A stretch of 64,000 nt of DNA from assembly GCA_021292105.1 (NCBI GenBank), contig CM037869.1:29155536-29219535 (forward strand), in the 5' to 3' direction. The position numbers and the translations under genes are program-made. The DNA comes from Anadara kagoshimensis (Eukaryota > Mollusca > Bivalvia > Arcoida > Arcidae). Position 1 is the stretch's first letter, and each line of letters opens with the position of its first letter. Below the pieces are notes generated by a model. It worked only from the letters and a program-made list of their open reading frames with translations, searched no databases and was not told the origin of the DNA. Of this stretch, positions 13,660-45,316 are shown one piece after another.

Positions 13660-13689
13660 AACGCGTTATGGTGAATCAACGAATTCTGG

Positions 13690-13830: not shown

Positions 13831-13843
13831 ATAATAATTAAAA

Positions 13844-21161: not shown

Positions 21162-22020
21162 ATGGACACGGCAAACAATTGTATTGTTTGTCAAAAACGT
21201 GTAAAGGTGAAGCAACATGCATTGCAGTGTGATAAATGTGATCGTTGGACCCACAGACTTTGTGATACTGGTAAGTTAAACGTTAATCTCATAAATGCAC
21301 TATATCACTGTCATTCAAAAATAATCGTAACGCTTTCTCAGTGGTTATTTTAGAGCAAATACGCTTTAATTTCTCACAGTATTCCACGTTTTTTCCGATC
21401 TGGAGAACTTTCATTTAGCGAAATATAAGCGTTAGGATTAAAAAATAATATTTAATCAAAATCACGAATCTTTGTTAATGTTTCTATTTTGGAAATGAAA
21501 TTGAAAAGATTACTGAATTAAATATATAGTTCATATTTGTAAATTGATTGTAAATGGATTAAATTCACTATCGCATATTTAAGTAAAAACTTTATTATTA
21601 TAATGTATTTAATCAAAAGTAATCATGTTATCTACTTAGCACTGATGCATAAAAATATCTGTGTAAATATATAAACAACATGGTTTAAACATTATTTCAA
21701 GTTATTCATGCATGTATATGGATGGTAAATTGATTTCAGGCATATCGCTTAAATGTATTTTAAAGGTATTTTATTTTTATTTATATTTCTATTTTCTTTC
21801 CAATCATATACTGCAAGTTAAATGTATTTTATTCTTGATTTAAATCCCATGCTTTTTGGCATTTATTATTTCCTTTTAAAATTATTTCAGGTTGCATACC
21901 AGAATGATGACAACGTTTTCAATTTTGTACGGAAAGTTATGGCTCTTCCTTTTTTTGCCAGAAGAACACATACTCCCAGCTTTCCAGAAGTTAAAAGGAA
22001 AAGCAAATGCTGAGCAAATT
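21162..22020 (+). pseudogene. MULE transposase remnant, unit 5
   Basis: The finger exon is 21162-21270 and intact; the late exon is 21891-22020 with the shared T7 break. Single-base losses in the intervening intron (for example near 21560) distinguish it from other copies. Confidence 0.72.
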
Positions 22021-22883
22021 GTGAGCTTCAAATTTGTCCTTTAGAATTTTAAGTTTACCTTTTTGGGTTTTCCTCGGATGTCAATGTCGAAAAAATGTTG
22101 CGACCTTTATCGCCAATCCATATCATAAAGTAGTTGCACAAGATTTGTTCTTGTTTGCCACTAAGAGGCCGACTGCATCCCAATCCATTTTTGGTGTGTT
22201 ACCAACGACAGAACTATCCATAACGCGTTATGGTGAATCAACGAATTCTGGTCAACTCGCCCCCTAACCAACTCGCCCCCACTATATACCAACTCGCCCC
22301 CATGCTAACTCGCCCCATTACCAACTCGCCCCCACTTATTTTAAAGTCAACACCAACTCGCCCCCAACTTATACCAACTCGCCCCAATATATATAATAAT
22401 TAAAAAATAATGAACAGAATAAAAATTTATTATCATGATTATAATAATCATAAAAATTAATTTTTATTCTGTTCATTAAAAAAAAATAATTTTTGCATTT
22501 TCCCGTGTTTATTGTTTGTACAATCCATCAAACAACGTTGTCACAGTGAACTTAATTTGTTGTTGTTTTTTTTAAATATTATTGTAATAATAATAATAAT
22601 ATAACAATTATCGGCACATTTTATCACCGGAAATTGCCGTGTGTTGACAGTGTGTTATGGCTTAGTGTGAATTTATGCAAACATGTTTATTTTGACTAAA
22701 CGATACACAAGCAGTTTACGGGACATGTGTGTACTATGATCACACGACCTTTGGCTTCGTTTTTATTTTCGAAAGTTCAAAAGATATTCAAAGAAATATA
22801 TTTTGACCAATAAGATTATCGACAACGATTAGATACATGTATAAATGTGCTGAGATTAGAAATGAAATTCATAAAACGTTACG

Positions 22884-22992
22884 ATGGACACGGCAAACAA
22901 TTGTATTGTTTGTCAAAAACGTGTAAAGGTGAAGCAACATGCATTGCAGTGTGATAAATGTGATCGTTGGACCCACAGACTTTGTGATACTG
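22884..22992 (+). pseudogene. MULE zinc-finger exon, unit 6 (partial unit)
   Basis: This is the same 109-bp exon with its GTAAGT donor. The following intron matches other units only to about 23041 (CTGTCATTCAAA) and is then replaced by the left terminus of the integrase/HECT element. The late exon is therefore absent. Confidence 0.72.
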
Positions 22993-23041
22993 GTAAGTTA
23001 AACGTTAATCTCATAAATGCACTATATCACTGTCATTCAAA

Positions 23042-23133
23042 CAATTTCTTTTTTTTAAAAAAGGAAAATTTGTCCTTCAAAATTCGACCTATCATTTTTA
23101 AATTCCATGAATGTTTGTTATCGTTTAGGTCAC
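23042..23133 (+). repeat. left terminal inverted repeat of the candidate transposon
   Basis: The sequence begins CAATTTC, has a T/A run, then AAATTTGTCC, ATTCGACCTATC and GAATGTTTGTTATCG, ending GGTCAC. Its reverse complement matches 45230-45316. It starts where the partial sixth array unit ends, so the element appears to have inserted into the MULE-derived intron. Confidence 0.7.
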
Positions 23134-23340
23134 AGTGAAAGGCTAAGTGGTTATTGCCTTTGATAAACGTATATTATTTCACAGCCTTCATGAGTATAAC
23201 GACTAACGGTTTTTTACAATTCATTTCTCGCCGTCTTCCCTCTTTTTTCTTAACGCGCATTTCATTTTACGAAAGAAAACCCGTGACATTGACTGAATTT
23301 GTTTTACAATCACTGTTCCTGCAACAAGCTCTTTGAGATA

Positions 23341-25991
23341 ATGGATAAAAGGGGTAAGTATTTGAACGCAATGTGTATCTGGCATCTTTTAATGTATGGA
23401 GTTGTTTCAATGGAGAGGATTGATAAGGTGGTTTAAGTTATTTCAGAATTAAAATTAAAATCGATTATTCTATTTCAAATTGATGATAAATACATGTGCA
23501 ATCGTTTTGACATTTTATAATTAATCTTTAATTTCAGTTATGGATTTCCTTCTATATTATGGACAGCAAGGTTTGACATATAAGGAAATCTCACTTATGT
23601 TAGAGAAAGTATTTGGGATAAAAATGAGGCAAGTTGATATTTTATAAATACTAGGTGATTAAATAGTCTTTTATATTTTTTTATCTTGAAGTAACACTGA
23701 TAGAAAATTTGGTATATATTTTCTAACTATTTATTATGATGTATAAAACTAATGCTTAGGTTTATCATTTTCGATTTTTTTAAATAAAAACAGTTTAAAA
23801 TACATTTTAATGATTGTGTTTACCTTAACTCTACACAAATCTAGAACTAGAACATATAATTTGGACAAAATTTCATGTTTGTAAGTTTTATTGACTATGG
23901 ATATCTAACTGCAATCAATAATAACGATGTCGATTTGTTGTTGTTTGTATGTTTAATGCTTTCTCAATATTTAATACTTCAAATACACCAAAATAAAAGC
24001 AGTCAATTTTTTAGATTGTTCATTATTGTATTGATAGTGCTAATGCTATTGGAAAAAGACTTAGAACATTAGGACTGTTTTCAAGAAAAGGATCGACTAT
24101 TCATACAAGGCACGATATTAAAGAAGCCATAAAGGTAGGAAATATATCACCAGAATTCATTAAAAGTAAATATTTAAGACCACTTTACAAAAAAGTGCTA
24201 TGGATTTTAATTTATTTTGCTTTACCGGTATATCATATGTATACAGTCATAGGATTTTACAAAGATTTGCACAACACCCTATATTCAATTTTTTTAATTT
24301 CATTAATTTGCCCTTTTAAAGGCATACCAGGTATCAGTTGACGTTGGCAATAGGCCTATAGGAGGATAAAGACTTGTCAAGTCGGCATTTTTACCGACGA
24401 GTTAATCCTTGATTTTGATAGTAAATGGGCTTTTTTAGGAGAAAGCTACCTAAATTAAATAAATTAAATACAGGGGCTAAGTCTAGATTTTGTAATAAAT
24501 AGATGCATATATGAAATCGCTGATGATACGACACAAATCGATTTTTGTGGAAAACGTATTAAATTGAAGTTCTATGATTAATTCAGATGTAAAAATAATA
24601 ACCTACAACTGAGTGAGATAAGATTATTAATTGCCACACAAAAAGATATTTGAAAATGAAATATTGCATAGTTATCTTTATAGGGTATCTTGGAAGATGT
24701 TTCAAAAACAGTTGGATATCGACATATGTTTGGAATTTTGAGACAAGGGATTTCACGTTCGAAGGTTTGCTATTTTCGAAATATTGACAGGCGACTTTTA
24801 GGTCACAAAAGATTTCCATCTTTCCTGTTAAAACGTAACACAAATGCCTTCTCGTTTAGTGTTAACTTGACGTATTTTGTAAGAAAAGTCCTTCAGCGTT
24901 AAGGAGATAAAATAGAAGAAATAAATTAACATTTCAAAAAACATAAAAACAAACGTGCATTTATTCTGCTATGAGACCAAATTAGTTATCGGTGCACAGG
25001 TTTATAAAAGAACAGATATGAAGTTACACGAATTAGCTTCTTGATGTTTACCCCTTAATGCACCATTATTAATACCTCTGTTATGAATTTCAATTCTAAG
25101 CAAATGGAAACAAAATTACACATTATTTCTTAAAGGGACACTGTTATGAATCTTATGAAAGAACTTGACATCGATGGAGTTAAATTTCGCAGAAGAAGGA
25201 GAATAAATCGAAGACTTTATCGGTCTTTTGGACCAAACTTTGTATGGCATTTGGATGGGTAATATAAACATAATCTAATTAAAAATTATATTGACATTTA
25301 AAGGTTATGTAGTGTATAGTTCTTTTCATGCTGTATATAAAACTGTGTTTTGCTTTAAGGATTTTGAAAAACTCCCATTACCATTCCACTTCTTTTAGAG
25401 TAACGGATAAATACCACAGTGCGCAAATGAATTCTCTCTTTAGCCTTTTTAAAATACATGTAATGAAAGCAGACCGTTTTTTGAAAATTTAAATTTTCAA
25501 AAGAATAATATTAAAGATTATTTTTCCAATTTTTCCGGCTGAACATAATTAGGCTGTCACTTCTATTTCTTTAATCTCCTTGAGTTTGTGGGTTGTGATA
25601 AAATAAATTGACTTGTCCTTAAACGCTTATCCTAAGTAACGGAATTCTAGAAATGTATTGGGTAGAAAAAAGGCAAAAATCTAGATTTTATTACCATTGC
25701 TCTTCTAACCATTTTTCAAAAAATAATAAAATTACTACTATTTTTTATCAGGTATGATAAGCTGAAACCATATGGTTTTCCAATACATGGTTGTATTGAT
25801 GGGTGAGCAAGATTGTTTTTAGTGAATGAATCATTTTGTCATGTGGAATTTTGTTATTTTTATTATTTATAAATGTAATTTATTCATTTCAATATCTACC
25901 CGAAGATTTGATGAAGTTAACATTTAATTTCCTTTTTAAATGTGGTTTAATTGTATTTAAATGCCATTTTTCGACTTTATAACAAATATAC

Positions 25992-26032
<41 letters not shown>

Positions 26033-29000
26033 CATGACAAAGTTGATTTATTCTTTTACAGATACTCTAGAAAAATAATGTGGTTGAATGTTAATTGTAC
26101 GAACAACGACCCGGCTGCTGTGGCTTGTAATTTTGTAAATTGTGTTCAAAGAGTAAATGGTAAGTTAACCATTGATGATAAAAATAAATGGATGCTCCCA
26201 TGAACCTGCAATCGCTCACCTAGTATCCACCTACGTTATCTTCTTTGAAAATGGACTGCTGTTTGGACAAATGTAACCACCGTTAGCAAGCATCGCACAA
26301 GAAAGTATATTGATTTCAAGTGTTATGTTATAGATATCAGGAAGAAATTGTATTATCAAAGTTAAGCTAGGATGCAGTAATGGCCAGTGCGGATGACAGA
26401 TGAGCATACTCAAGTATCAACATACAGTACATTTTGATAATTATTGTACATTTGTTTTGAATCCATTGAGCTAATGTAGGAATTTTTACGAAATGCTACT
26501 TTTGAATTGTATTATTTCACAAAATTTCAAAAGTAGCACATGACAATTGTACTACTTTTTGAGAACGACATAATGATTCCTAAGAAGGAAAAGAAAAATA
26601 TTTACTATGACATCTGATGGGATCGATATAATATACAATAAATAAATAAATAAAAACCAACAGCAACAACGAAGTTATAATATAAAATGTCTCATCCTTT
26701 TTTAAATTCACACGTGAAATATCTTGTTTTTTTTCTGTATTTAAGGTTTAAAAAGTATTGCAAAATAAAAGTTCTTTTGTGTACGTTAAGGAAACCATAT
26801 GAATAAGGGTATCGGATACAGTAAAGGCACAAAAACGTAAGGCTTTGTTGTAATTTTTCCTGCTAATTCATATATCGCATAATTTCAGGATGTCCACAGA
26901 TATTACAAGCTGATCCTGGTACAGAGAATACTGTTTTGGGAGCAATACAATGTGTTTTTAGGAATAACGCCGAAGATTTATTTTGTGGTATAAAAAGTTT
27001 CCGGATTGTTAAGTCTAAACTTAATCAGGTGAATTCTTAATTAAAGTTTTATATTATTTTGCTTTAATATGTCATATTTTAATTTTCAAGAAGGATACTC
27101 GAAGAACTGTCTTATACTTCATATTTTGAAGATTCAAAGTAATGAAATAAAATACATGCATGCGACTGTCAAACTCGAAAATAGTAATACTACACGTACC
27201 TAAATAACTTGGAAAAATAATTCAAATTGTAGAGAATTGAAGCTTGGTGGAGTATGTTGCGACGAAATACGAGTGACTGGTGGATTAATCTTTTTAAAGA
27301 CCTGGAAGCATTTGGTGAATTTCGACGGGGAAATGCTAATGATATGTGAGAAAGTGTTTATATTGTCAAAAGGAATGTAACAAATAATCAAAGTACTGAA
27401 AGTACTAAAATTCGCGAAAGATTAGAAAGACAGGGAGTTCAGTGTCTCCATCAATGTAGTGTCAGGTATATGAAGTTGTCAGGTAACTGAAAGGAGGTTG
27501 TTATGTTCACCTTGCATTGCTCCCAACACAACATAGTGGGTTCATGTAGTGTGCAATGTGCAGACTATGAGCATGGGGCTGTTTTAATATTCACACAATG
27601 GACCAATATTAAGGATTCATGTAGGAAATAGTTCAATCCGAATAAATGCATGTATGGAACCATCAAGGATGGTCAAAGTTACTTCCATCGTCATGGAGAC
27701 CCTAATATTAAACAAGAGGTCCATGAGCCTTAATGCTCACATGCAGCTGAGTACATATCTCATGCAGAGGTTCAATGGTCATTGACATTAATTAAAGAGA
27801 ATGTCCAAATAAATTTTCAGCAGTAAGGGCCAATTATATGTAAGGATTTTTTGCAAATGTATTATAACATAACTAGTCATAAGAGTGCTACATATAATAT
27901 ATCTGAAATCTAGCTACAATATATGTTTATAAACAACTAAAAAGGTAAAGAAAAATTTGAACCCATGACATTAATCTAAATATCGCAATGAATATTAGGT
28001 CAATACCTACAATTTAGAAGCCTATACAAAAAGTTTATAGTTTTTGAGATAATTAACCATGTCAGTATTTGTTTGCATCAGTGACCTTGACTTTTAAACT
28101 CATGTCCTTCATTCATATATCAAAATGATTGTTAGGCCAATACCTACAATATTTTAACATATATGCCTATACAAAAAGTTTATAGTTTTTAAGACAATTA
28201 ATCATTTCAGTATTCATTTGCATCTATAACCTTGACCATTAGACCTATGACCTACATTCATATATCAAAATGAACATTGTGTAAATGCCTATAACATTCT
28301 GATATACATGCCTATAGAGAAAGTTTATCATTTTTGAGATAATTCACCATTTCAGTATTTGTTTGCATCTATGACCTTGACCTTTGAACCTATGACCTTC
28401 GTTCATATATGGAAATGACCGTAAGGCAAATGCCTACAATATTCTAATATACATGCCTACACAAAGAGTTCAAAGTTTTTGAGATAATTAACCATTTCAG
28501 TATTCGTTTACATCTATGACCTTGACCTTTGAACTTATGACCTCTATTCATATATCAAAATGACCGTTGTGCAAATGCCTACAGTATTCCAATACACATG
28601 ATGATGATGCCCATACAAAAAGCTTATAGTTTTCAAATATATTGACAAATACATTAATTTTGCAATTTCCCCTCAAGTACCTTGCCATTATCTCATTTTG
28701 GCCCCTAAAGCTACAATATGTGCAAATCTAAAACTAGGTGCCCATAGTGTTTTACATGAAATATCTAAGTTATATCTCTTGTAGGTTCAGGGCAGATGAT
28801 TTTTAAAGATTTTCACAAATTTCCCCTTTATGGGGCCCCAAGGGGACATAATCCTTGCATTTGTGCAAATCTGAAAACCCCTTACTTGACCATTACTGTC
28901 AAATATCATCCAATTTGGCTCTGTAGTTTTGGAGGAATTGATAAAAAATGTGAAAAGTTTATACATGACGCACATCGGACGAAGATAGATGGCAATTGCA

Positions 29001-32000
29001 CATCTGAGCCTTTGGCTCAGGTGAGCTAAAAAGTTTATACAAGACGGATGAAGATAGATGACAATTGTTCATCTGAGCCTTTGGCTCAGGTGAGCTAATA
29101 AGCTTCTGATATCTTTCATGTCATAATTGAGGATATTTTTTAAATAAATTAATAACTTGAAAAAATTAACTATTATTTTATTATTATTTATATCACCAGA
29201 GTTGTGTTTTAAGAATTCGATAATTTTTGGAAGACTTTTTATTCCCGAGACCAGCATAATTTTAGTAAATCTTGTAAACAACAATTTACTCAATCGGGTG
29301 GCCGTTAGGATCCCCGCTGACTGGGTTTGACAGGTGACCCCTCTACAAAGGTTCTGTACATGATAAAAATGTAGTTGACAGATGACCACTCTACAAAGTG
29401 ATAGCTATCCCAGATTTCACTCTAATCAATTTATAATTTTTTAAGGATGACTTCACGGAATGCTTTGAAAAACGGGAAAAGCAGTATGATAGCACAAAAT
29501 TCCAAAATTTTTGTCTTAATATGGGGAGACTCCTAACATCAGCAGGGATTGAGCTTAACTTTTCGATGAGCCATACAATGAACTGTCAAGAGTGATGGTT
29601 GATCTGAATATATCAGGCATATACATTTGGATTATTCTATCCCTTGCTTTACTTTTCGATATTCAACATCTGCAATTACATTGACGAATGGTTTTGCAGA
29701 AAATGTTGATCTATAGGTACTGCCAATGTCAATGACTGTATAATTTTGGCAGATTTTGATTTATTAGCAGGAACTTGTTTTGCATTACTAAAGGCTTGGG
29801 CCTGTTTGTGAGATTCAGAAATGTCATGTTTATTTACACTGTCAAGTTTATAACTAGTGCAACCCTCGGTAAATACAGATTTTTTTCCTGTCGAACTCTA
29901 CACAATCGGCACACTTCATTCCGTCCTGCGTATCATACAACCAAGGCCTGCCATCTTCCCATGGCTTTTTATATGCTCCGATGCGTTTGGACTTATCATA
30001 CTCTTGATAGTACTTTCGTTTTTCCGCAGGTCCTTGTTTAGCCTTTGGAGTCGATGCTCCTAAAAATTTCCACATGGCAGAAAGCCGGAAGTATCATTTT
30101 ATACATAATTATCAGAAAAGGAAACGAAATGGCACCGTATTTGAATTCCGGTCGGAACACCGGTCCATTTACACTTGTTAACTATATGATACCCATTTTT
30201 CAATTTTACTATTATTGTCGCCAGTCAGAAATATAAACAGGAAATCGGTAAACGGGTCGGAATGTCAAATACACCGAACTGAAAATTCTAATCGCCACCT
30301 GGCAGCCCTGGGCGACCTGTGTATGATACATTTATCGCCCAGAGCGAAAAACTGGGCGCCCGTTAATCTCAATCCCTGATCGGGAGGGTTGGCAGGTATG
30401 ATAAAGCGGAGAATATAGTTGGGGCGGAAAATATTAATATTGGGGCGAAACGTCCATAACCCGCATTCAAAATTTGAGTTATCTACCTTTATTTCAACTT
30501 TGAACCTACATACGAGAGAGAGTTGATTATCTGTAACGGAAGAATATTCGGGTTGAGAAATCTGCATGTAACAGCTAAATTCGAGAATGATCAAGATCAT
30601 TCGCGAATAAAAACGCATTGTTATTTATATTTCTCCAAAACCAGATAATATCACAGCTACAACTTATCGGAAATACTCTTGATTCCAACCTTTTTGTCCA
30701 TCAGTGAACCCGTCCATTCTTCTGTTTGTGTAGGGTGGATGTGTCGTTTTTATACAACATTTTGCTGCAATTAATTTAGTTTGTGGTCTTAAGGTTCTTA
30801 GATGTGTACTTATTGAATACATGTGCTATTTTAATAATGAACATTATCATTTTTACGCAATGCAAAAGTGATTCATAGACTGTCTTTAAAAACACTTGCA
30901 TCAGATTTAAATTGATTTTTGGTCCTCTATAAAAACATATTCCGGTTGCCACTTATTTTATAACGATTTCAGAAAACGATACAATTTGTTTTCAGATTAT
31001 GCTTGAGATACTGTTTTATGCCGTTAATTCAGCAAGAACTAGACAGGACAGTTGAAAGGTGGAATAAGCATTTGATATCACATAGCAGAAATGCCGGATG
31101 TCCTCATGGTCGTCCTAATGTGTTGTATACAGTACCAGAAGAAACGGGTAAGGACATATCTAGGATGGTCGATAACATAGGTTGTACATATACAATTTAC
31201 TCTGTCAAACTTCATGCTAGTATATATGATAACTCCATCTCTACATTTGCCCAGGGTCTTTCGGATGAGATGGAGGTGAAAGTTGTCATATAACAAATAC
31301 TGCTCTGTTTGAACTTTACAGTGAAAATATAAAAGCCTTACATGGATATTGTTGTGTCACATCATGATACATAAATGAGCTATATTTTGTGTTCCTGGTC
31401 AGTATTGTTATTAATTAGTATTATTGATTTTGTTATCACCATTTTCATAACACTTACAACTTTTATACAGTGTTACTAAAATATTTTAATATAAATATAC
31501 TCCACAATAAATTCAAACAGTTATGAAAATGTAGACTTGTTTATATATGCATTTATCTTGTATAGATAGTAATTATTTCAATGTTTCTTTCTCTACGCTG
31601 CAGATCCCAACCTCTCATATGGGCAAAGTGTAAAATGTGGACTGGATTGGATTATTGGATTGGATTGGACTCTTGGACTGGACTGTTGAACTGGACTTAT
31701 GGATTTGACTCTTGGACTGGACTTATGGATTGGACTCTTGGACTGGATTGGACTCATGGATTGGACTCAATCCTCATGGATTGGACTCATGGACTAGACT
31801 TAAAAAAATGGACTTATGAATTTTTTTCATAATTTTAAATTGAAAACTGAAAATATCAAACACTACAAATGTTTTACATATATCTGAACTGATGAATACC
31901 CTATAAAACAGAAAAAAATATAGCTATGGTAATTCTTTCTTGCTTGCTTTATCTGGAAAATATCAAACGTTGTCAAAGGTCGCATATTTTTCTCCTTAAA

Positions 32001-34363
32001 GCTGTAGTATTTGTTTTACAAGCTCTTAAATGCTTCAAATGAAATGATGACAGATTGTTGGTCTCATCTGCAGAAACTTAAGAACTACAGTATCTGACAC
32101 TAAGTAAGATAAAAGTACTATGTTGATTTAAGAATAACATTAACTATGATATACATAATAGCGCAGTAACAATTAATACATACTGACAAAATGTGACAAA
32201 ATACATACTACAATTATTTATATACTTTAAACACAATAAAAATACACACACACACACACACACACACACACCATTTAAAATCGGTTCAAATATATGATCG
32301 ATGTACTATATAAAACAATACTTTTATTACTGTAACAAATAGGTTTTGAAATATGAAATGAAGTAGTAATGATCATAAATGCAAACAGTTATCATTATAT
32401 TATTGTAATGGAGAGAAAAAGTGAAGAATTTAAACATAATTAATGACAGAAAAAAAATTATTTTTGGCCAGTATTTCTTTAAATTTAATTCTTATAACCT
32501 AGACTTTTACTTCATAAAAGATGTGCACAGAACTTTCAAAGACTTTTTTTAAATAATTTTTTCCCTCAAAATTAAAATTGGCATAGTTCAATGATAAATG
32601 TATGTACAAGTTTTATCAGAATTTTTTTCTGTTTAGGATGTTAAGTGTCACCTACTTCATTCATTGTATATACATTATCATGTAAAAACAATTCAATAAA
32701 ATCTTATAGACCTAAAAGACAAAATTTGAATGTCAATTTTAATTACCAGATCAGATAAGTTTATTAGAAAAATAATTTTCTACAACTGTTGTTTACAGTT
32801 ACTCCTGATGTAATCTGATATAATCTCCCCAGCTTAAAGTGAAAAATGCCACAAAGACACGGTCTATCATCACCTTCAATTTTTTAAACTAACATGAGTT
32901 AGTTGTCAAATGTCACAAACTCTCTTCAGAAAATGAAACAAAACATTAACTTGATAAGAGACAACTGATAACCACCCCTTTAGATATTAAATAACAAATA
33001 CATTATAATAAAGATAGGTTAAAATTCTGCAGTAATATTATAAAAAGTAATAACAAACCAATCACATCTGTATTTGTGATTACAAAGGACAATCCAAGAG
33101 ACTAGTCCATGAGTCCAGTCCAATCCAGAGTCCAGTCCAAGAGTCCAATCCAATCCAATCCACATTTTACACCAAGAGTCCAATCCAATCCAGTCCACAT
33201 TTTACACTTTGCCTCTTTTTTCAAGAACGCGCGAAAAGCAATTTTATCCTAATCTTATGTTCTTGTTATCATATTTGATTTATGATTTTTATTATCAGTA
33301 ACACTGTATTCTGTTTCTGTTACATCTCAATAAGTTTAGTCGAGTTTCTATGTCAAGTATTGCTTTAAACAAAAACATTATCAGGAGAAAAATCTATTAA
33401 TATGTATACTGGCGATGCGTGATAAAAAAGTCTTATATATATATATATATATAACGCTAATCGTTAATTTTAATCCATAGTGTGAGCGCCCTATTGTTTA
33501 ACGTCTCACTAGCAGTATTCTATTCCAGTTCCTCGTGAATTAAATTACACACAAGTTTTTTGAGATGCAATTTCATGGGGTGCTACTGTTTATAATGCCT
33601 TCCTTAGCCACCCGGCCACTGCTGTCCCCGTTTAGATTAAGTTGATAGTAGCATGTAGGTTGATAAAGTGTATATGCACAACATACATACTAGAAAACAT
33701 GTAGGTTGACAATAAAGTGTACATTTATTGTACAACCTACATACTTAAAAGCATGTAGGTTGACGGCTGATATCAGCTATCGTACATATCGCAGGTGTTG
33801 ACAGCTTTAGCAGGATCTTTTTTTTGTCTTTCATTTTATGTCTTAAAATTGCTTTTTCCAACTATAAATGTTTCCCGATTGCATATGACAATTATTTCAT
33901 TCAATATTTCTACGAACGACCATCGCATGAACAATATGCATTTTGAATGTATATTCAGAAAATGCTTCATGACGAAAGAAACAGCCTGAAATGATAGCAA
34001 AGATCATGATTAATAATACCAAAAGTATGAAGTGTCTAGAAGAATGTCTTCATGAGGTCATTGACTATAAGGTTGTAGAATTGATGGGTGTGCGACATTT
34101 TTTTCTTCAGAAACTCATAATTTTGATTTAATTAATAGTTATGTAATCTTCAATTATTAGGTGGGAAAAACTGCTTACAACCAGTTGATGAAGAAGACCT
34201 TCAGTTTGCATTTACACAATGTAGTGATACACCAAGATCAGGCTCAACTAATTTTGATTTATGGGCGTATGCAGTTTTTACCAGAAATAATTGGACAGAT
34301 GCAACAACATGGAGAGATGCTCTAAAACAATATTTCCATTTGATTGAGCTGTACACCCAATGA
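23341..34363 (+). CDS. rve/DDE integrase-like transposase gene, 11 exons
   Basis: Exons: 23341-23353, 23538-23628, 24038-24134, 24684-24764, 25136-25258, 25752-25802, 26062-26159, 26889-27028, 27233-27345, 30996-31147, 34161-34363; about 386 residues. The start ATGGATAAAAGG gives the HTH-like N-terminus MDFLLYYGQQGLTYKEIS. The core has WHLDGYDKLKPYG (Asp about 134), ILQADPGTEN (Asp about 193) and NQRIEAWW (Glu about 234), a DDE triad with normal spacing. LIQQELDRTVERWNKH and HGRPNVLYTVPEE follow. This resembles the integrase-core family found in many copies in fish and invertebrates; relation to IS3EU-type transposons is possible but unproven. Splice phases agree except at exon 5, where GGG (25135-25137) leaves one base too many. 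Exon 2 uses a GC donor. Convergent with the HECT gene. Confidence 0.82.
27346..27712 (+). other. integrase intron 9, first part: no gene seen
   Basis: This is AT-rich intronic sequence after the exon-9 donor (GATAT|GTGAGA). It includes a direct AAGTACTGAAAGTACT repeat and a diffuse stretch with TGTAGTGTGCAATGTGCAG. Nothing coding is visible up to the insertion at 27713. Confidence 0.5.
27713..29096 (-). mobile_element. Helentron-like element with tandem repeats, in integrase intron 9
   Basis: Reverse orientation relative to 7956-11069: it starts CAAGAGGTCCATGAGCC and ends GGCTCAGGTGAGCT. The core has about five diverged ~150-bp repeats of the same family (CCTATACAAAAAGTTTATAG, ACCTTGACC, CCTACAAT). 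The terminal block with hairpin GAGCCTTTGGCTC occurs twice, near 29003-29030 and 29070-29096, separated by about 65 bp. No coding capacity is evident. It is older than the copy at 7956, judging by repeat divergence. Confidence 0.65.
29100..30075 (-). pseudogene. hAT-like transposase relic (TTF-type zinc-finger N-terminus)
   Basis: The minus strand starts MWKFLGASTPKAKQGPAE at 30075 and reads RPWLYDTQDGMKCADC, then, after one frame change, GCTSYKLDSVNKHDISESH. This is the N-terminal zinc-finger layout of hAT-derived proteins of the ZNF862/KIAA1586 type. The frame break lies in a seven-base homopolymer (29880-29886). A stop follows near 29712. Further on, LLTVHCMAHR is readable near 29580, matching the conserved HC-AHR segment of hAT cores. 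It sits antisense inside integrase intron 9. Clearly decayed; the family call is moderate. Confidence 0.6.
30076..30995 (+). other. rest of integrase intron 9: no gene seen
   Basis: Positions 30260-30470 are relatively GC-rich, with repeated TTGGGGCG and GGGCGCCCG-like stretches, possibly the edge of another old repeat. No coding frame is convincing. The exon-10 acceptor TTTTCAG is at 30989-30995. Confidence 0.4.
31622..33213. mobile_element. inverted-repeat element with TGGACT-type minisatellite arms, in integrase intron 10
   Basis: The left arm starts GGCAAAGTGTAAAATGTGGA and continues as irregular TTGGACTGGA repeats to about 31800. The right arm (33090-33213) is its reverse complement, ending ACACTTTGCC. 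About 1.3 kb of AT-rich DNA lies between, with a CA microsatellite at 32243-32272. A related single arm lies at 34784-34889. The outward-facing GGCAAAGT ends suggest a non-autonomous terminal-inverted-repeat element. No target duplication was found. The ORF at 31581-31832 is just the translated minisatellite. Confidence 0.6.
33640..33765 (+). repeat. short tandem repeat CATGTAGGTTGA, ~2.5 copies
   Basis: CATGTAGGTTGA followed by TAAAGTGTA and ACATACTAGAAAA-like sequence occurs at about 33653, 33699 and 33751. Some copies also form a hairpin with ACAACCTACATAC. It lies in integrase intron 10. Confidence 0.6.
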
Positions 34364-36909
34364 GATTTTGAAATGTACTACTTTTGATCAATACTTAAAT
34401 TGCGTATACACCCTGAGATTGTAGCTTGAAAACTATGACAACATGTCCATGTTCATGTTCAGTCATCTGTGCTTTAATAAAATCCGACAGCAGACAAAAC
34501 CATTTTATTTGGAAATACAGAAAAAAATAAACAAAGCTTGAAAAATGGGCACGCCACGGTAGTAAGTTTGTTCCTTCAACTAAATATCAAATGCGGTTTT
34601 ATGGAGAAATATAATTATATATAAACATCTATTTTTTTTCAAGTGGTATGATCTATTGTACAAATATTTGTTTCTAGGTTTATTTATTAGGCAATGAAAT
34701 ATTGGACCATATTTTAAAAAAAAAATCATAAGTATTGGTATAAATGGTTTTGATTTTAAAATAAAATGATTATCGATATATATAGTCAGTAGTCCAATTC
34801 ATAAGTATAATCCATGAGTCCAACTGTCCATAACATGAGTCTAGTCAAAGGTTTCAATCCTCCAATCCAATCCACATTTTAGACTTTGCCGCATGAACTC
34901 GATTGCTTCTTGCGTATGGATATTCAGTTTCGCAATAATCACGTGACAATTGCACTGCTGAGTGAGAAAGTGTAAATTCTAAACTTAATTGATGCCATAT
35001 TCTTAAACGATCAGTTGAAAGATCCTTTTACGATAAAACTTGGATGAACTTGACAAAAACATTAACCCTCCCCCCCCCCCCCCCCCCATTTAAATCGACT
35101 ATGGAGTGAACTATATTGTGCGAGTTCAAAATTAATTGTCACTTAACTAATTAATTTCTGGATAATGATTATTCTGTTACTACTCTTCCGGTCAACAAGC
35201 ACGCTATTGTCGCAAATTAATGAGAGTTCACAAATTACATAGCTTTTCCGAACACGCTCACTCCATCTTGACACAAATATAAACCTTAATCTCATCTCAA
35301 ATGCGACGAAAACACAATTACAACATCATATATACATGCATTTAGTAGTCCTCGGTGGCCGTGTGGTGTAAAGCGTGTGCTAACGTATCTCATTGCCTCT
35401 CGCCCAGGTTCAAATTCACTCGCGACAGACCTTAATGTGAAAAGTTTGTCAGTGGGCTTGCCTAAGGTCGATGGTTTCCTCAAACATACCTGAACTGAGT
35501 GCCTCGATAAAAGTGAAAGTTGAATGTTGGCTGGGGCGTAAATCAAAACATATACTTAACAATATATTTAAAAGTTTTCATAACAATAAGAAAAAAAAGC
35601 GAATTTAATGTATTTGTTTCTTTATACATTCGACACTAAAATCACATTTAATATTGATAATCATGACGCAAAACGAATCCATCATATGGTTTAGTAATTT
35701 GACCACGAGTGACAAATTATCAAATGTGGTGGGATTATACTTGAGGATAACAATAAAATGAAACATTCTAAACACACACACACACCACATGGGTTACATT
35801 ATCGTTGAAGTATAAGTCTATCCCGTTAACTGGTTAATGGCTTACTAGTTATTTACACTGTCGTAATGATTACTTATTGTTTCCTTATAAACTTGACTTT
35901 TTGGGCGATTTTTAATCAAGTTCTGAAAAGATGATTGAAAACTTCAATAAGTTTAAATCCTTCTTTATTCTCTGGTCACGCATGAATGCAATTAAAATAC
36001 ATTGTGTATTATAAAAGTAACATATTAAATAGTTCTGTAATAGGAATGTAAGTACATATAACTGCAATCTAGAAAAAAAACTAAATTGCAATCTTGTGAT
36101 TAAAAGATCTGTATGAATCTACACGTTGTTTTTACATATAAGTTTTTAAATTTCAACAGTAAGAATATTTTTGAAACCAATTATAAAATGAAAGAAAACA
36201 AATAATATTTTAATTCTGTTGACTACTTAAGTCCTAAAAATAGCTTAAGAATTGTGAGGGGAATTGAGCTCAAATGGAGGGTGCAAATCTTGTTTTGAAA
36301 CAACAGTGTTTGGATATATTAAAACAATTTTATATAATTAATAAAAGAAAACATGAATCAAAAGCAAGACACAGGTCTCAATGGGAATTCCCGTTTTTGT
36401 TTGGCCACGAACATTTGTGACGTCACGCGTAAACATTTACACGTACTTGTAAATGGGGGGGGGGTTTCGCATGAAAATAGTTCAAAATACTAGAAATGAC
36501 AGTACTCATAAAACTTGTTAATGACGCGTGATAACTGTGAATTCTGCAATTGAACAGTACATTACTTTAGGATGAATAAGTGAAAACAATTACTGAATCT
36601 GATTTAAATATGACACATATTTAACTAGTGTCATAAATGAAAAAAATATTAAATGACTGCAGAAAAAAATTAATAAAATGATTTTTTACATTTTGAATCT
36701 AAAACATTTTAAATAAAATGAAATTTGAAGATTTGCTATTATTTGTATTACCAAAATATTCTACAAAGTGATTTTAAAAAATATACATATATACAATAAA
36801 GATATGAAATAGAAATCATTACACTTATCATTTCAAAGAGACATCTTTGATTTAAGAGATAAAAATTATACACAGATTTTGCACTGTCACATCTTTATAA
36901 GACCTTTAC
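34364..36909. other. spacer between the convergent integrase and HECT genes
   Basis: No gene is visible. It holds one minisatellite arm (34784-34889) ending TTTTAGACTTTGCC, a C homopolymer around 35070-35087, a SINE (35344-35545), a short CA run near 35776, and a G homopolymer near 36456. Transcription terminators of both genes should lie here; AATAAA-type sequences are too frequent in this AT-rich DNA to assign. Confidence 0.5.
35344..35545 (+). repeat. tRNA-derived SINE (Meta/V-SINE-like)
   Basis: A box-like GTGTGGTGTAAAGCGTGTGC and B box-like AGGTTCAAATTCAC have normal tRNA-promoter spacing. The 3' part GATAAAAGTGAAAGTTGAATG and GGGGCGTAAATCAA resembles the conserved tail of SINEs widespread in molluscs. 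It is not a functional tRNA gene: the acceptor stem does not close. Confidence 0.6.
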
Positions 36910-39900
36910 CTAACACAACCCAAAATATTGGTTTGAAAACGCTAGATCAAATTTTTCAAATAAAGCTTTCTGTTCCATCCCTGTGTTCACCGGAAGGTTT
37001 AACACGTTTATACACGTCGATGCAGACGGGTAGTTCAATGAAATCAACTGTTGGTTGTATCGAAAAACCTAACACTGGTTCTGATGTTAATCCTGTGCAA
37101 AATCGATGTATGTCCGGTAATGAGATGTTACGTCTTCCTGCTAAAATAATATTGTTATAATTAGTGATGCAAAATCATACCTTATATTGTTAATAATTAC
37201 TTTTTAATTGTTTAATTAACAACAGAAAAAACAAACACGTCCTTTAAACCCCACAAAAACACATGTAGCTTATTTGTGCGAAACATGGTCGATGCCTGAA
37301 ATGATACATTAAGAATCAAATGTAATTTTCACAAGCTACTGGGACATAAACCGTTAAATTACATGAAAAAGAAAAAAGAAAATACAAACAGAAAAAATAT
37401 AATCTAATTTTACCTGCAACCTCTCGCACATATTTAACAAAATGCGAGTAACTTTCTTCCTGATGCATCCTATCATTTGAACCAGCATCGCTGAAGTTAG
37501 GCTTCAGCATTCCAAGCAACCGAGCTACTGTTAGGGTAACCCGGTTGCTTGGAGTGAAAAGGTAGGTACCCCAGTGTTGGTTTCTTTTGTATAAACTGAA
37601 AAAAATAAAATGAAACACTTTTCAACTGCAATGAGACTAACATAACATATTTTATTAATATTTCAACGAGAATGTACAATATTGTCAATGGTAGAATGTT
37701 CAGCTTTCTGGTGTTTGTTAGGTCACAATGATATCTAAAATATTGTTGTTATTACGGTGAATAGTCGAGTGTCCTTTGGTCAAGTACAAAAATCAGATAG
37801 AATTACACAAAAAATTAATTACATCATAAAAAAAACTGTAAAAAAGATAAGTATGGGATATGCAAACGTACTGTTTTGATAGTTTTCTACGTTCTTGTTA
37901 CAGTGACGGATAGTAAGAGAAGATCTATGCGTTCAATTGTAATCTTTAGACCTCATTGTGGGATATATACTATAGTAATATCTATGTAGTAAATCGGGAA
38001 ATATTTGCGTTAGCTCCTAATAGAATTGCTTTTTATTAAGATATTCGTGTACTTTTATTTCTGTGACTTGTTATTGAGGCAAATCTGAGAGAAATTGTAC
38101 CAAACTACAGTTAGATAAACATTAATACCGTTAATAGTCCGGTTTGATCCAATCCCTGTCTAAACTGAGTATAGCACTCGCTCGTGTCGGTGCTTTCTAC
38201 TATTCCCATTAAAAAAGTTGGACATGGACCACCCTGTATTGCACTCAGTCCTACAACATAATAAAATAGAAATATTTCTATATTGTTGTATATGACATGT
38301 ATAAGGTTTATAGTATGCCCGCAGTCAGAGATACAGAGATGTGTATGTGTGTGTGTGCCTGATGCTGACTTCTACAGTCATGCGCAGTGCACACTTAGGA
38401 TATAGTGTATAACTCTGTTGGTTGAGACACCATTGACTAATATTTCACATGTCATCAGGTATTATAAATAGAGCCTCATGAGGCCCAAACTAAGGAGTTA
38501 TTTGCAAGAGATGTTGAAATATCATTTAATTAAAATCAGTCTAAAAAGTTTTGGGAATTCCACATCCAGCCAATCATTTTACACTAAACTTACCACACAT
38601 TATATTAGAAACTATACTACTCGTAAGTGTTTTGATACACATAGTACGGTACACTAAATGTTAAACATTTACATTTGTAATTAGAAAAGTGAAAAATAAG
38701 TATCCAAGGCACAAATACAACTGACACTATAGATTTATGATCCTCCAGTTGTATTATAAAAAGGTCGAAAGTTATATGTAAAATTTTGTGATCGAACAGA
38801 TAAGATTAATATTCGTTAAGCTGCAGGGGGTCGCATGATAAGATGTTTCATTTGTCTGGCCCTACCCAGATTCACATTGAGTGTACACTGAACTAAAATT
38901 AAGGAATATTTCAATGTCAATTTTTTAAACCATTACAAAATTAGAATTAAATATCTAATGTTATATTTAGTTGTTAAGGGTAGGTTTATTAAACAAAACA
39001 ACACATTATCTCATAAAACTTAAATTTTTAACAATATTGATAAGAGAAAATTGAAAATATTTGAATTGAGTGTACACTCAATTGAGTGAATGATTGTGAA
39101 ACTGGGGCCTGGTCAGTAACTTGTCTCGTGCTCTGTATAGACATTACATAGATGTGATTGTCAAATATTTACATTGAGTAATTTGTATTACTGAATAATT
39201 ACATTCTGTTTAAAAGTAATTATATTTAAACTTACCACTAATTATTCCGGCAGCCCAATATATTCCGGCAGCCCAATAATGTCTCTGGACCAATACACTT
39301 GTAATTTTCTTCAATTTGACGCTATTTTCGTCGGTGTCTAGAACATTTTCTTTAAAATAATTGATGTAGAGTTCAAAGAACTCTCTCCTTGGACCTCCTA
39401 AATCTTCTGCCTCTTCCCCGTAGAATGTTACATTTAAGGGATATCGTACATTTTGAATTGCAAGAATCTCATTTGATCCATCAATAAATATGGAATTTCT
39501 CCCAACAAATATCTCGTTGGTTTCTCCTTCTAAATATTCCCCTGGATCTTGTAAATCCAGAGGACGACCAATAAGAAACTTTCTAGAATAACGTGTCAAG
39601 AGCTCTGTGGGTTCTTCATTGTCCTTGCTGAAAGAGACATAGACTGCATAAACAACAAATTTATAATTTAATTTATATTATCTAATAATTATATAATCTA
39701 ATATTTTGGTAATTTTCATGGAAATAAATTTACTTTCAAAAACTGACACTCAAATTCTGTCATTGACGTTGCTATAGGCAAATCTACGATGGTCAATATA
39801 AGCTTATAAAAATGTATGTGAAATTACATTTGACCTCTCGCAACTTTTAACTGAGGTCTAATCTTTATATAAAAATGCAATATTTGTATCACTTAAGAAC

Positions 39901-42389
39901 AAATTTGTGTAAAAGAATGAAAATATGTCGTTTAGAGTTTCGACTCCGAAAAAACTAAGGCATGATATAAATATTTCAGCATATGAAATAAATATACCTT
40001 GATGTAATAAGAAATAGTTATATATTATCCTTAAAATCTCTAGCAATAAAAGAAATAATCTAGGAGTGATTTCAGCTGTACATGATAATGAGAGAGAGAG
40101 AGAGGGTAATAACCATATAAAAAATTCGTTAGTTCACGTAAGCTAAGAAATATATATATCAAATAAAAATATCCAATCCGCTTTTGTTTTTTACTTTAAC
40201 AATGACGACTATACCATTTTGGAGACTTTCTTCTATCCTGGAATATCAATATGAGTGAAAGCGTGTCGTGCTGATTTGGAGTGAATTAACAATTTTGATT
40301 TTGAGTATTATTTATTTCTTCCTAAATACAAGGAGACAGTAAAAATCACATAAATTCTGTTCTGTGATATTTATTTATATACTTACACCTCTTTTAGAGT
40401 TTCATTCACTACACTCTCGACACAGTTCTCAGTTTCACTGAAAGGAAGAAAATCTTTGGATGTAAATGGTCAAATTGTATGTGAATATAGATGAACATGC
40501 ATTATAGATCTAGATATGTTTTTTTTTTTTTTTTTTTTTTTGAATATGTACATAAAAACTTTTTCTTAAATAATTTATGACCGTTTTCCATGTAAAATAC
40601 ATAGAAAAATCAAAATCGTTATAAGTGTATTTGATACTAGAACTCTGATTCAATAAATAATTACCTTTTCTCTTGTGAATGTGAATATAAGGTACCCATG
40701 TTATAGACAATGATTTAAACTTTCTAAAACTTGTATTTATAAAGAATCTTGATAGAATTGTATTTTCCCACACATTAATATATAATGACACATACTTTTC
40801 TATCACTTCAACATCAGCTGTGTTGGTATCACTACCAAAAATCTCTAAAAGTCTATGATTGTGTTGAATGATGCTTTGTTTATAATTTAATAAAAAGGGA
40901 GATGTCATATTTGGTAATCCCGAGATGAAGTCAAACAATGCCTAAAATGCAAAAAACAGAATTGCGACTAGTGTCTGGTATACATTATTTCAACATTTTA
41001 TTTGTCACACATGTTTTTTATATTAGAGAAAAAAACTTAAGACAACTTTTGGAAAAAGATAAACTTAGATTGAATAGATCCACGTGTTTTCAGTCAGAAT
41101 CTAAATTAGGCAGCGATATGTTAATCGCATTTTCTGTGGCGTTCACGGGTCAAAGGTAAAGAAAAGTCATTAACGTGAGCTTGTAAATGAGTTCCTGTCA
41201 TTAAATTAGATAAAACACACATTTCATAAATTCGTTTTTCTTATTTATGAATGTGTCTGATAAACGAAAAATCAAATATTAATTATAGAGTAAAAATAAT
41301 AAAATATAACTATCTTAATCCATATTTTTTATTTATTCATTTTATAGTCAATAAAACATTGCATACATTTTGAAATGTGTTGATTTTTAATTCATAGTTT
41401 ATTCTTACCTCACTTCGGGTGTTGTGCGGAAAAGACTGTACAAAAACGTTGTCATTAATCTTAAAAGTAATAGTTATAACAGGGTCGTTTTCTTTGTGAA
41501 AAGACAACGTTTTGTCCTTATCCGAGAATAAATCGGGAAGGTCGTCATCCGATGAGCTTTCACTGACAATCTCAATTTCTTCATTGTTCATGTAAAAATT
41601 GGCTGTAAAAAATAAATGAACACATTTACTGTAATAGTCAAACAATAATTTGTTTCATCAATAAAGGCCCACAAAGGAAATTTCATAAATATGAATTTGA
41701 TTCCACGTGCATCATGAAACAGAAACGTTTAATTGGTACAAAAAAAAAAAAATTAAAGCAAATTGCATACTTCGTATTCTTAATCAACTAACACACACAC
41801 ACACACACACACTTTATTGCCGTAAATTGAATGTGTAAGTTTTCGCTTTTTTTTATAAATGTCTGTGTCTCATAAGTCATTTAGGCTAAATATTATATTT
41901 TATATTTAAATTATATATTTCATTGTGTTTATGGCATGTGGCACGTTAATAAAACAAAATTATATATATATATTATATGAGTATCTCAAGCTGTGTCTGT
42001 ATCTACAGGGCTTTTACTTACATTTCTCGCATAAATATAGACGAAGCCGATCAAATTTCATCTTTGGATCCAAAAATTTCCTATAGCCGTCTATAGAAAA
42101 TTCAGCTGATTCATCGGGCAATGCATTGACCGGCGTTCCATCGGGGTACACCAAGACAAAATTGTCACTGCTTTTGTATTTTTGCCTGAATAATCTGTTC
42201 AAGGAACAGAATTTGCTGTAAGCATCATCTTTTATCTGGTTCTTATTGTTATCATTCCTGGAATATGGGCCTACCACTACTAGTCTTCCACATGCCGATG
42301 ATGAGCTAATTTTGGAAAACTTACTATTTTTAAACTGGCCATGACCAACTCGTATCTGCGAAGAAAATTTTGAATTATAATATGTATAG

Positions 42390-42423
<34 letters not shown>

Positions 42424-45153
42424 GCTGTTTTTGTTAAGCTTTTGGTTTTAGCAGATACTCGACATATTATTTTTAAAAGAATGGTGACATTCGATCTTTT
42501 AATCCTGATTGTATAAAAGAAAAATACATTTCATTAATTTTAAAATTCTTTTATTATATAATTATCTTACATGAATTGGTAAAGTAGATGTTCTTGATGA
42601 TGAGGCAACATGTGTAATTGAATCAACTCCTATTGGTCTTCTATGCATTTGTTGTCTAAATGCTTGAAATCGATCAAATCTGGCTGTACTTGTATCTATA
42701 AGTAAAAACAAAATTTCTAGCTTTACCAAAAGAAATCTGATTCTGAGACATATATATGTAAACATATAACTTCGGTGTTGGATATAGACTTTAATTAATA
42801 TTCTGAATAATACTCAATTATTTTTATTAAGTCTCCCAAACAAAGTTAATGGAGACTTATTGTTTTACCCCCATTTTTTTATAATAATAATAATAATTAT
42901 TATTATTATTATTATTATTAGACTAAATTTTCCAAAATGGCCGCCTTGCCATGGAAACAAAATGGAGTTAACTTTAATACAATTAAAATCGCAAGCTCGT
43001 TCAAATGTCGAGTAAACAAGGGGGAAATTTTTAACAATATCAGTTTAATATTCCAAAAATACATGGACCGGATTCTTTCCAATTAGTATAGGGATACAAG
43101 GATACAAATAATTTATTTAGGGGCTGACTTAGGTATACGATGGCCAGTATGAGCCAATAAAAACCTTTACAAAGTTGAATTTTGTCCCTCGAAATTTCTG
43201 TAACGGAGACAAAATTGTAGACGAAAATTCAAAAGATTAAAATTCTCTCCCTCTCTTCTAATCCCGCTCGCGTTGTATTTATCCTGCAATTAATGCCTAT
43301 AAAGGGCATGCTATAAAACATTGATTTAAACAGAAATAACGAGAAGGGTTTAAAATAACACTCCATACTTAGTGTTCTAAGTCATCTAAGAGTATTCTAT
43401 TAATTCTGTTAATCTGGTATCTCATTTTTCTGTATCTCGTTTCAAATGAAAATGAGTTAAATAAAATGGACTTCATATAAACTGATAATCATAAAATACC
43501 GAAACAAGGATCTAGGTTACCTGTTCTTGGCACTCCAGTAACAACAATGTATATCCTGTTTTCCTTAAACCAGCCACCAGCTGGTTGTACAAAAGTTTCA
43601 TTTCTGCATAAAACATGGTGACATCGACCATTTTCTTCATCACGATATCGAAGTGAAGTAGCAGTTGGAAAAGCGCTACCTGCAAAGATAAAAAAGAAGC
43701 TAAATAAGCACAGAAAACTGCGAGGCAACAATCTTTAAAAGACATAGTATTTTTAATTATTTATTTTTATTATTATTTTTTTTGTATATCATCAAGATTC
43801 TGTATATCAGTAGACCCAAAGAAATATTAAATAAAAATATTCTTTGTTTTTATATAAGGGAATATTTTCTATCGGATATGGACTTAAAAACTTGAAGTGA
43901 TTCACAAGTTAAGGGCGTAGCAAAAACAACTCAACGATAAAAATTGAAATTATACAAGATCTCGCAATTGATTGACATAAGCAAAAATATAGCAATGGGT
44001 ATGAAGTTATACGCTGTTTTGAACCTACAACCAAAGATCCGTAATACAATAACCCAACTAAAACGCACCAAATCCAGAAAGTTGATGTTTTACATTATAC
44101 TCTCACATTATCGACATTAAGTTGTCACCAGTATTGATAATAACTAACAGGAACACTATATCAAATATCTAAATAATTTAACATGATAATAAACATTTTG
44201 AATACTTGTTTTATTACTAATACGTAAAAAGTCCTCAATTACAGTCATGTTTCCGTGTATTTAATTACAATTTTTTAGAGAAAATTCGCTTTTTTTTCGA
44301 GAGAGATATTCTTCTTCTTTATCTTCTTCTTCTTCTTATATTATTATTATTATTATTATTCACATTACTGATAAGATGTGATGCTCATATTTATTCTTGA
44401 TGGTTCAGTGTAGATGCGACGGCCTCGAGAGCGGGAGGTAATGGGTTCGAACCCCGCTCGGGTCATACATAGAACTTAAATTTGAGATACTGCTTTCTCG
44501 CCTGGCGCTCTGGAGGTCAGAGTATCAACTGATTCACGCGGTGTCAGGATAATATGACTGAGGGAATGGTATGCTTGTCTGTAGCGCACTCTGTGAACTA
44601 GCACGTAAAAGTCTCTCCGAGTGCGCGTTATTACAAGACATACCAAAACACACTTGCACATCTTCTGTATACATGAACTTGTTCTTAGATTAATCCAAAC
44701 CTAATTAATAAACTTGTGCTTGTCGCAAAAAGCTTAAAATTACCGATGTGATGTAAACTACACCAAACACAATTACCAAAGAAGATTATAAAAAAAAATT
44801 ACATTAAAAAGAGTAAGAAAATTCTGTAATTGATTTCAATTCTATAAAACATTAAATTATTATCAACAATTAAAAAAATGACGTTTTTGTCTATTTCAAA
44901 ACAAAAGCTATCTACTTACGCAAGTCAGAAAGCGTTATTTCTTCAGCAGGTGGGATAGGAAACCAAATTGGATCAGTATCCTCCTCACTGGCTTTTATTT
45001 TAATAGATGTCCTATTTAGATATTTAAAAATATTATAAGATTATAATAATTACAAAAATCTCGGGAACTATAATAACAAAAAAGTCAGTAAAATAAACAG
45101 AGTAAAACTTACATGTTTTCTCTGTTCCTTCGCACAATTTCCCTCTGCGACAC
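36910..45153 (-). CDS. HECT-domain E3 ubiquitin ligase gene, 12 recognised exons, 5' end not found
   Basis: Exons (descending): 45113-45153, 44920-45011, 43521-43679, 42571-42695, 42022-42355, 41409-41602, 40796-40941, 40387-40437, 39236-39627, 38129-38250, 37414-37595, 36910-37137; about 687 residues plus an unseen N-terminus. The HECT domain starts with PLNVTFYGEEAEDLGGPRRE, then LSAIQGGPCPTFL, RLLGMLKPNFSDAGSN and ISLPDIHRFCTG. The active-site segment is STCINVLNLP (Cys codon 37012-37014), with the C-terminus FDLAFSNQYFGL. HECT ligases pass ubiquitin from E2 to substrate through this Cys. It resembles the multi-copy G2E3-like HECT genes of molluscs and fish. Two single extra bases (37540-37542, 37028-37030) break the frame, so it may be a young pseudogene. 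An 18-bp in-frame duplication lies at about 39241-39276. Confidence 0.8.
40516..40541 (+). repeat. T homopolymer (~24)
   Basis: A long T run lies in the HECT intron between exons 40796-40941 and 40387-40437. As the A tail of a minus-strand retroposon it would be suggestive, but no SINE body is recognisable next to it. Confidence 0.6.
42826..42965 (+). repeat. AGTCTCCCAAACAAAGTT dispersed repeat with ATT microsatellite
   Basis: TAAGTCTCCCAAACAAAGTT is followed by GGAGACTTATTGTTTT, a short inverted pair, then (ATA/TTA)n and CCAAAATGGCCGCC. This head sequence looks like a dispersed bivalve repeat. It lies in the HECT intron between exons 42571-42695 and 43521-43679. Confidence 0.5.
44398..44680 (+). 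repeat. tRNA-derived SINE
   Basis: GAGAGCGGGAGGTAATGGGT runs into a canonical B box GGGTTCGAACCCCGC, then TCGGGTCATAC and TACTGCTTTCTCGCCTGGCG, the layout of bivalve tRNA-SINEs. The A box region is diverged (ATGCGACGGCCTCGAG). It lies in the HECT intron between 43521-43679 and 44920-45011. Confidence 0.65.
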
Positions 45154-45229
45154 CTGCACAATTTCAATTTAAATTATGTTTAAAACTATTCACGTTGTAA
45201 GCCATTATATTATCTAATTAACTCTCTTC

Positions 45230-45316
45230 GTGACCTTAACGATAACAAACATTCCTGAGATTTTGAAAAAAGGTAGGTCAAATTTTACTTTTTTAAAAAA
45301 AAAATTGTCCCAGGGA
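45230..45316 (-). repeat. right terminal inverted repeat of the candidate transposon
   Basis: The sequence begins GTGACCTTAACG and reads AACGATAACAAACATTC, then AGGTAGGTCAAATTTTACT and a T/A run with ATTGTCCC. It is the inverted counterpart of 23042-23133. It lies about 75 bp beyond the most 5' recognised HECT exon. Confidence 0.7.

What the first reader, a model, noticed from the sequence alone, without database searches (positions are those of the whole stretch)
23042..45316. A ~22-kb candidate transposon that pairs a DDE integrase with a HECT ubiquitin ligase
Seen: inverted termini (23042-23133 and 45230-45316; 24 of 25 bases identical in the best block) enclose just two genes, both multi-exon and convergent. 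One has a complete DDE triad, the other a HECT domain with its catalytic Cys segment. Known: transposases of this integrase-core family and G2E3-like HECT genes are both multi-copy in aquatic animals. Inference: the HECT gene is cargo or an accessory of the same mobile unit, for example acting on host or transposase stability. I do not know of a described eukaryotic cut-and-paste element with an E3 ligase, though a prior description cannot be excluded.
Basis: partly seen in the sequence, partly recalled or inferred. Interest (0 to 1): 0.87.

Follow-up and report, generated by a model that had tools for sequence, protein, structure and literature searches.

The report
Bivalve jumping gene carrying ubiquitin ligase
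A bivalve genome holds a 22-kilobase stretch in which matching inverted ends enclose a DNA-cutting transposase gene and, facing it, a gene for a protein-tagging ubiquitin ligase; the same two genes are found together again in the window and on scallop chromosomes, so they likely travel as one jumping element whose ligase would help it get past the host's defences.

Summary
Inverted repeats (23041-23133 / 45230-45308; local score 55.5, maximum of 500 random resamples 44.5) enclose an 11-kb multi-exon IS3-like DDE transposase gene (+) and a convergent 8-kb HECT ligase gene (-). The left end meets the base where a 1.7-kb tandem array stops matching. Pairing is not accidental: the window holds a second, diverged, decayed pair in the same tail-to-tail order at 59.7-64 kb, and in Pecten maximus two near-identical transposases and two near-identical HECTs share two chromosomes, with locus numbers 1 and 4 apart. 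An Argopecten pair shares a contig length. So this is very likely a two-gene DNA transposon family of bivalves. Against: no target-site duplication; right boundary unproven (the array does not resume); frame breaks in both genes here; one Pecten HECT model lacks its C-lobe; Argopecten lists five transposases but one HECT. The ligase has a TDP-43_N domain, a predicted ubiquitin/SUMO-like fold and a HECT domain; its target is unknown. Fungal IS3EU elements carry other cargo (alpha-kinase, TET/JBP); the listings of eight literature searches showed no DNA transposon with an E3 ligase.

The parts
23041..23133 (+). left terminal inverted repeat; outer end coincides with the end of the tandem-array match
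45230..45308 (-). right terminal inverted repeat (outer end less certain; 54-bp repeats of the outer motif continue to about 45440)
23341..34363 (+). transposase gene; homologous exons about 23538-23628, 24038-24134, 24684-24764 (frame break inside), 25136-25258, 25752-25802, 26062-26159, 26889-27028, 27233-27345, 30996-31147, 34161-34363; a short ATG exon at 23341 is possible but has no homology support
   Evidence: PF24764 rva_4
25136..25258 (+). transposase exon ending WHLDG: probable first catalytic Asp (the equally invariant Asp of YDK in the next exon is the alternative)
26889..27028 (+). transposase exon with QADPGTEN: probable second catalytic Asp
27233..27345 (+). transposase exon starting RIEAWW: probable catalytic Glu
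36910..45011 (-). HECT ligase gene, about 12 exons (limits approximate, first exon uncertain); frame breaks near 37560 and 37031 in this copy
43521..45011 (-). exons about 44920-45011 and 43521-43679: N-terminal TDP-43_N domain when spliced
   Evidence: PF18694, 1.8e-11, 44.2 bits against a cut-off of 27.1
40797..41602 (-). exons about 41409-41602 and 40797-40941: counterpart of the part of P0129 predicted to have a ubiquitin/SUMO-like fold
   Evidence: by sequence alignment to P0129; fold seen on the P0129 model only
36910..39640 (-). HECT domain exons: about 39236-39640, 38129-38250, 37414-37595 and, with the Cys segment, 36910-37140
59718..61538 (+). second, decayed transposase: exons about 59718-59816, 60899-61039, 61425-61538 (one stop codon)
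62160..63988 (-). second, decayed HECT: pieces 63851-63988 and 62160-62321, 78% and 81% identical to T. granosa P0130; may run on beyond the window
13459..23041 (.). about 5.6 copies of a 1720-bp tandem repeat, broken at the left end of the element

Best explanation
Inverted ends enclose an IS3-like DDE transposase gene and, facing it, a HECT ubiquitin ligase gene; the two likely move together as one DNA transposon, and the ligase is predicted to tag host proteins that restrain the element, which would favour its transposition. Shown: the inverted termini, both genes and their tail-to-tail order, a second diverged pair in the same window, and near-identical pairs on two Pecten chromosomes. Inferred: cut-and-paste movement by the transposase acting on the termini. 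Inferred and untested: the ligase is an accessory protein; its TDP-43_N domain would let it oligomerise, its ubiquitin/SUMO-like part would recruit it to a target, and the HECT domain would ubiquitinate that target (most likely a host silencing or restriction factor, less likely the transposase). This copy has frame breaks in both genes and, unless they are assembly errors, cannot do either job now. Confidence is about 0.88 for one mobile unit and about 0.35 for the anti-silencing role.
Against: No convincing target-site duplication and no TA..TA ends. Had the element simply inserted into the array, the rest of the unit should follow the right end; it is not in the window. Copies in the window's own genome could not be examined. 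In Argopecten 5 transposases but 1 HECT of this family were listed, so pairing is not obligatory or HECTs are lost or missed. Of 11 named bivalve transposases among the 120 listed of 1339, 3 have a listed HECT on a contig of the same length. One of the two Pecten HECT models (P0124) loses the HECT sequence after residue 488 and has no C-lobe, and the second Pecten transposase model (P0015) lacks 41 residues, so one Pecten pair may be broken too. Same-contig linkage in Argopecten alone is weak. That close LOC numbers mean neighbouring genes is my knowledge of NCBI numbering, and distance and orientation in Pecten were not seen. Both genes of the window copy have frame breaks. Nothing here bears directly on the ligase's target.
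Confidence: 0.72

Rival explanations
1. The HECT ligase acts on the element's own transposase: it sets transposase levels, or strips the very stable strand-transfer complex off DNA after integration by ubiquitin-dependent unfolding, as ClpX does for phage Mu (recalled).
For: The two genes recur as a pair, and the best Foldseek matches of the transposase model are TnsB, IstA, MuA and retroviral integrases, recombinases known to make stable complexes (recalled). In convergent RAGL transposons the second gene's product is predicted to contact the transposase (PMC7204232, passages).
Against: No interaction evidence; relatives of the transposase in cnidarians and others were not shown to have a HECT; transposases outnumber HECTs in Argopecten.
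Confidence: 0.3
2. Passenger: a host HECT gene was captured by an ancestral element and rides along without helping it.
For: Accessory and cargo genes of host origin are known in large eukaryotic transposons (PMC6431247, passages); HECT diverges faster (41% for window against Pecten in alignment A3) than the transposase (53%); broken copies exist: the window copy, copy 2 and the Pecten model P0124.
Against: P0122, P0123 and P0129 keep the HECT with its Cys in three genera at 45-47% identity, with a domain make-up of its own (TDP-43_N); a neutral passenger should be lost or broken over that span.
Confidence: 0.2
3. Chance neighbours: transposases of this type and HECT genes are both multi-copy in bivalves and lie side by side by accident.
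For: 1339 transposase relatives were found, so the family is abundant; HECT counts are lower bounds, as only about 8000 candidates were scored.
Against: Few HECTs of this family were found (8 and 6 hits), yet pairs recur twice in 64 kb and twice in Pecten with near-identical partners on two chromosomes.
Confidence: 0.05
4. The unit is larger than 23041-45308: the repeats at 45230-45440 are subterminal and the true right end lies further right or was deleted.
For: The array does not resume after 45308; no convincing target-site duplication; 54-bp repeats of the outer motif continue to about 45440.
Against: The inverted pair brackets the two genes closely, and its outer limit on the left coincides with the array break.
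Confidence: 0.3

Closest known systems
IS3EU / GingerRoot DNA transposons (Repbase superfamily)
   Same: IS3-like DDE transposase; TET-bearing fungal members carry extra genes (alpha-kinase opposite to the transposase, TET/JBP between them; PMC12730594, passages)
   Different: HECT ligase instead of kinase or dioxygenase; bivalve host; TA..TA ends and 6-bp duplication (PMC10045372, passages) not found here; about 22 kb with long introns
RAGL transposons (ProtoRAG type)
   Same: two-gene DNA transposon, also in bivalves, with the accessory gene convergent to the transposase between inverted repeats (PMC7204232, passages)
   Different: another transposase (RAG1-like against IS3-like) and another accessory gene; 5-bp duplication there, none seen here
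KolobokP
   Same: animal, bivalve-rich DNA transposon with a second enzyme gene (PMC9587614, abstract)
   Different: His-Me nuclease, long terminal direct repeats, other transposase superfamily
Burro giant Gypsy-like retrotransposons of planarians
   Same: mobile element with ubiquitin-pathway and SUMO-like domains (PMC6431247, passages)
   Different: LTR retrotransposon; the word HECT does not occur in that paper's main text
G2E3-like HECT ligases of animals
   Same: HECT C-terminal half of similar type (resemblance to G2E3 recalled, not tested)
   Different: N-terminal TDP-43_N and ubiquitin-like parts; no PHD finger found by Pfam in P0129, P0122, P0123

Membership tests
IS3EU | IS3-type DDE transposase | tested here: met
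   P0002 against NCBIfam transpos_IS3 2.8e-12 and IS481 4.2e-7, P0001 6.1e-10 and 3.4e-6, all under the curated cut-offs; PF24764; D153, D212, E253 of P0002 listed as invariant in the 30 rows of A5
IS3EU | TA..TA termini | tested here: inconclusive
   inferred ends read ACAATTT..AAATTGT; no TA..TA pair with an exact 5- or 6-bp duplication in 22991-23140 x 45201-45560, but the ends are not fixed by a second copy
IS3EU | 6-bp target-site duplication | tested here: inconclusive
   the 6-bp candidates (TTTAAA, AAATTT, CTTTTT) are palindromes or T runs
IS3EU | placement in a transposase tree with Repbase IS3EU consensus sequences | not testable with these tools
   Repbase sequences not held
HECT E3 ubiquitin ligase | bilobal HECT fold | tested here: met
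HECT E3 ubiquitin ligase | catalytic Cys in the C-lobe | tested here: met
   Cys column in the 7 of 9 rows that reach the C-lobe (P0124 and P0125 end earlier and align there by accident); window segment PSASTC present but out of frame with the upstream part
HECT E3 ubiquitin ligase | ligase activity | not testable with these tools
   needs an assay
G2E3 | N-terminal PHD/RING-like fingers (recalled) | tested here: not met
   none in P0129, P0122, P0123 by Pfam up to E 1
RAGL transposon | RAG1-like transposase and RAG2-like kelch partner | tested here: not met
   Pfam gives rva_4 and HECT instead
DNA transposon (any) | several copies sharing termini, with target-site duplications | tested here: inconclusive
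   two gene pairs in the window and two near-identical pairs in Pecten, but termini seen for one copy only; own-genome search unanswered

The most novel reading that the evidence does not exclude
An old family of bivalve DNA transposons carries its own ubiquitin ligase and uses it as a weapon: an oligomerising HECT enzyme with a SUMO-like module that is drawn to the SUMO-dependent silencing machinery and destroys it, so that the element escapes piRNA/chromatin repression. It would be the first cut-and-paste element known to encode an E3 ligase.
Probability: 0.15. Interest if true: 0.88.

Novelty: new variant of a known kind. Interest (0 to 1): 0.66.

Why it matters
DNA transposons with a second gene show how selfish DNA recruits other functions; RAG1/RAG2 is thought to have begun that way. 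A ubiquitin ligase as the second gene would point to protein destruction as a transposon strategy in animals, would reassign some HECT genes of bivalve genomes from host to transposon, and gives a directly testable system: count paired copies, express the pair, mutate the Cys.

Full report
WHAT IS THERE. The window is 32.8% G+C and comes from an ark clam very close to Tegillarca granosa: the HECT exons match the T. granosa predicted protein P0121 at 342 of 351 residues over the six longest of eleven pieces, and even stretches that are intronic here match it. The local alignment of the end regions scores 55.5; 500 pairs of first-order resamples reach at most 44.5, and the next best place to the right scores 32.5.

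TRANSPOSASE. With homologs from scallops and oysters as guides, ten exons with GT-AG introns (one possible GC donor) can be placed from 23.54 to 34.36 kb on the + strand. A stitched protein matches PF24764 (1.3e-22). The two relatives tested score best against the NCBIfam IS3 transposase model (2.8e-12 and 6.1e-10, below its cut-off). The model of P0002 (pLDDT 87.8) resembles TnsB, IstA, MuA and retroviral integrases in Foldseek (TM-scores are low, so this is a resemblance of the catalytic core). Three acidic residues (D153, D212, E253 of P0002) are invariant in the 30 rows of A5 and present in the window. The frame breaks once, in the exon around 24744.

ONE UNIT. First, the window itself contains a second pair: three transposase exons at 59718-61538 (+) with the same limits as in copy 1, then HECT pieces at 63988-62160 (-), again tail to tail. 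It differs strongly from the first: 69 of 117 identical residues in the transposase; 19 of 41 and 19 of 44 in two HECT pieces. In the tree of 27 transposases copy 2 groups firmly with P0012 (unnamed source) and weakly with Argopecten P0003, copy 1 is unresolved within the same 13-row clade, and the three HECT-linked scallop transposases group together; so the pairing was likely present in the clade's ancestor or arose repeatedly. Second, in Pecten maximus two transposases and two HECTs lie on contigs of the same two lengths, with locus numbers 1 and 4 apart. Both partners are nearly identical between the two places (272 of 280 and 363 of 364 ungapped positions), although the P0015 and P0124 models are incomplete. 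Duplication of both genes together is what a mobile unit does; a segmental duplication would look alike. Third, in Argopecten one pair shares a longest-contig length, which alone could be chance, since the five listed transposases occupy four large contigs and one small one there. Pinctada has a HECT (P0123), but no Pinctada transposase is among the 120 listed of 1339. Of 11 named bivalve transposases listed, 8 have no listed partner.

BOUNDARIES. A 1720-bp tandem array (13459-23041, about 5.6 units) matches itself up to 23041 and no further; the inverted terminus starts at 23041. Two independent signals at one base make the left end credible. The right end is weaker: the rest of the array unit does not follow it, no convincing duplication flanks the unit, and 54-bp repeats of the outer motif run on to about 45440. 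A deletion after insertion, or a larger unit, would explain this.

HOW IT WOULD WORK. By anatomy the transposase gene starts just inside one end and the ligase gene just inside the other, transcribed towards each other, as in RAGL transposons, which bivalves also have (PMC7204232, passages). I infer that the transposase cuts and joins the inverted ends. For the ligase I commit to an accessory, host-directed role: TET-bearing fungal IS3EU elements carry TET/JBP genes that are proposed to counter silencing (PMC12730594, passages). Retention of a HECT with its Cys in three genera argues against a mere passenger. Action on the transposase is the main rival.

KNOWN OR NEW. Complete IS3EU families end TA..TA and usually have 6-bp duplications (PMC10045372, passages); neither was seen, so I do not file this as an IS3EU member, only as IS3EU-like. 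The listings of eight literature searches showed no paper on a DNA transposon with a HECT ligase.

Noticed in passing
window 13459-23041: About 5.6 tandem copies of a 1720-bp unit, 98-99% identical, with an exon-like start MDTANNCIVCQKRVKVKQHALQCDKCDRWTHRLCDTG (PHD-finger match 2.2e-5, just above the cut-off) followed by a GT.
   Followed up: partly
window 8460-10988 and 27956-28639: A 145-bp satellite occurs as a long array outside the element and, inverted and about 74-80% identical, inside a transposase intron.
   Followed up: no
window 31622-31803, 33090-33213, about 34790-34890: GGATTGGACT-type minisatellite blocks, some in inverted orientation, inside the element; the predicted N-terminus of the T. 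granosa HECT P0130 looks like a translation of the same repeat, so the repeat may lie near more than one HECT gene.
   Followed up: partly
window 33761, 39784, 43134, 45461, 59174: Dispersed motif resembling GGCTCATATCGGCCATCGTA, in places beside GGGACAAATTTT-like palindromes: perhaps a small non-autonomous repeat family, present inside and beside the element.
   Followed up: partly
window near 37031, 37560, 39255: Three small length differences between the window HECT and the near-identical T. granosa protein P0121; polymorphism, decay or assembly error.
   Followed up: partly
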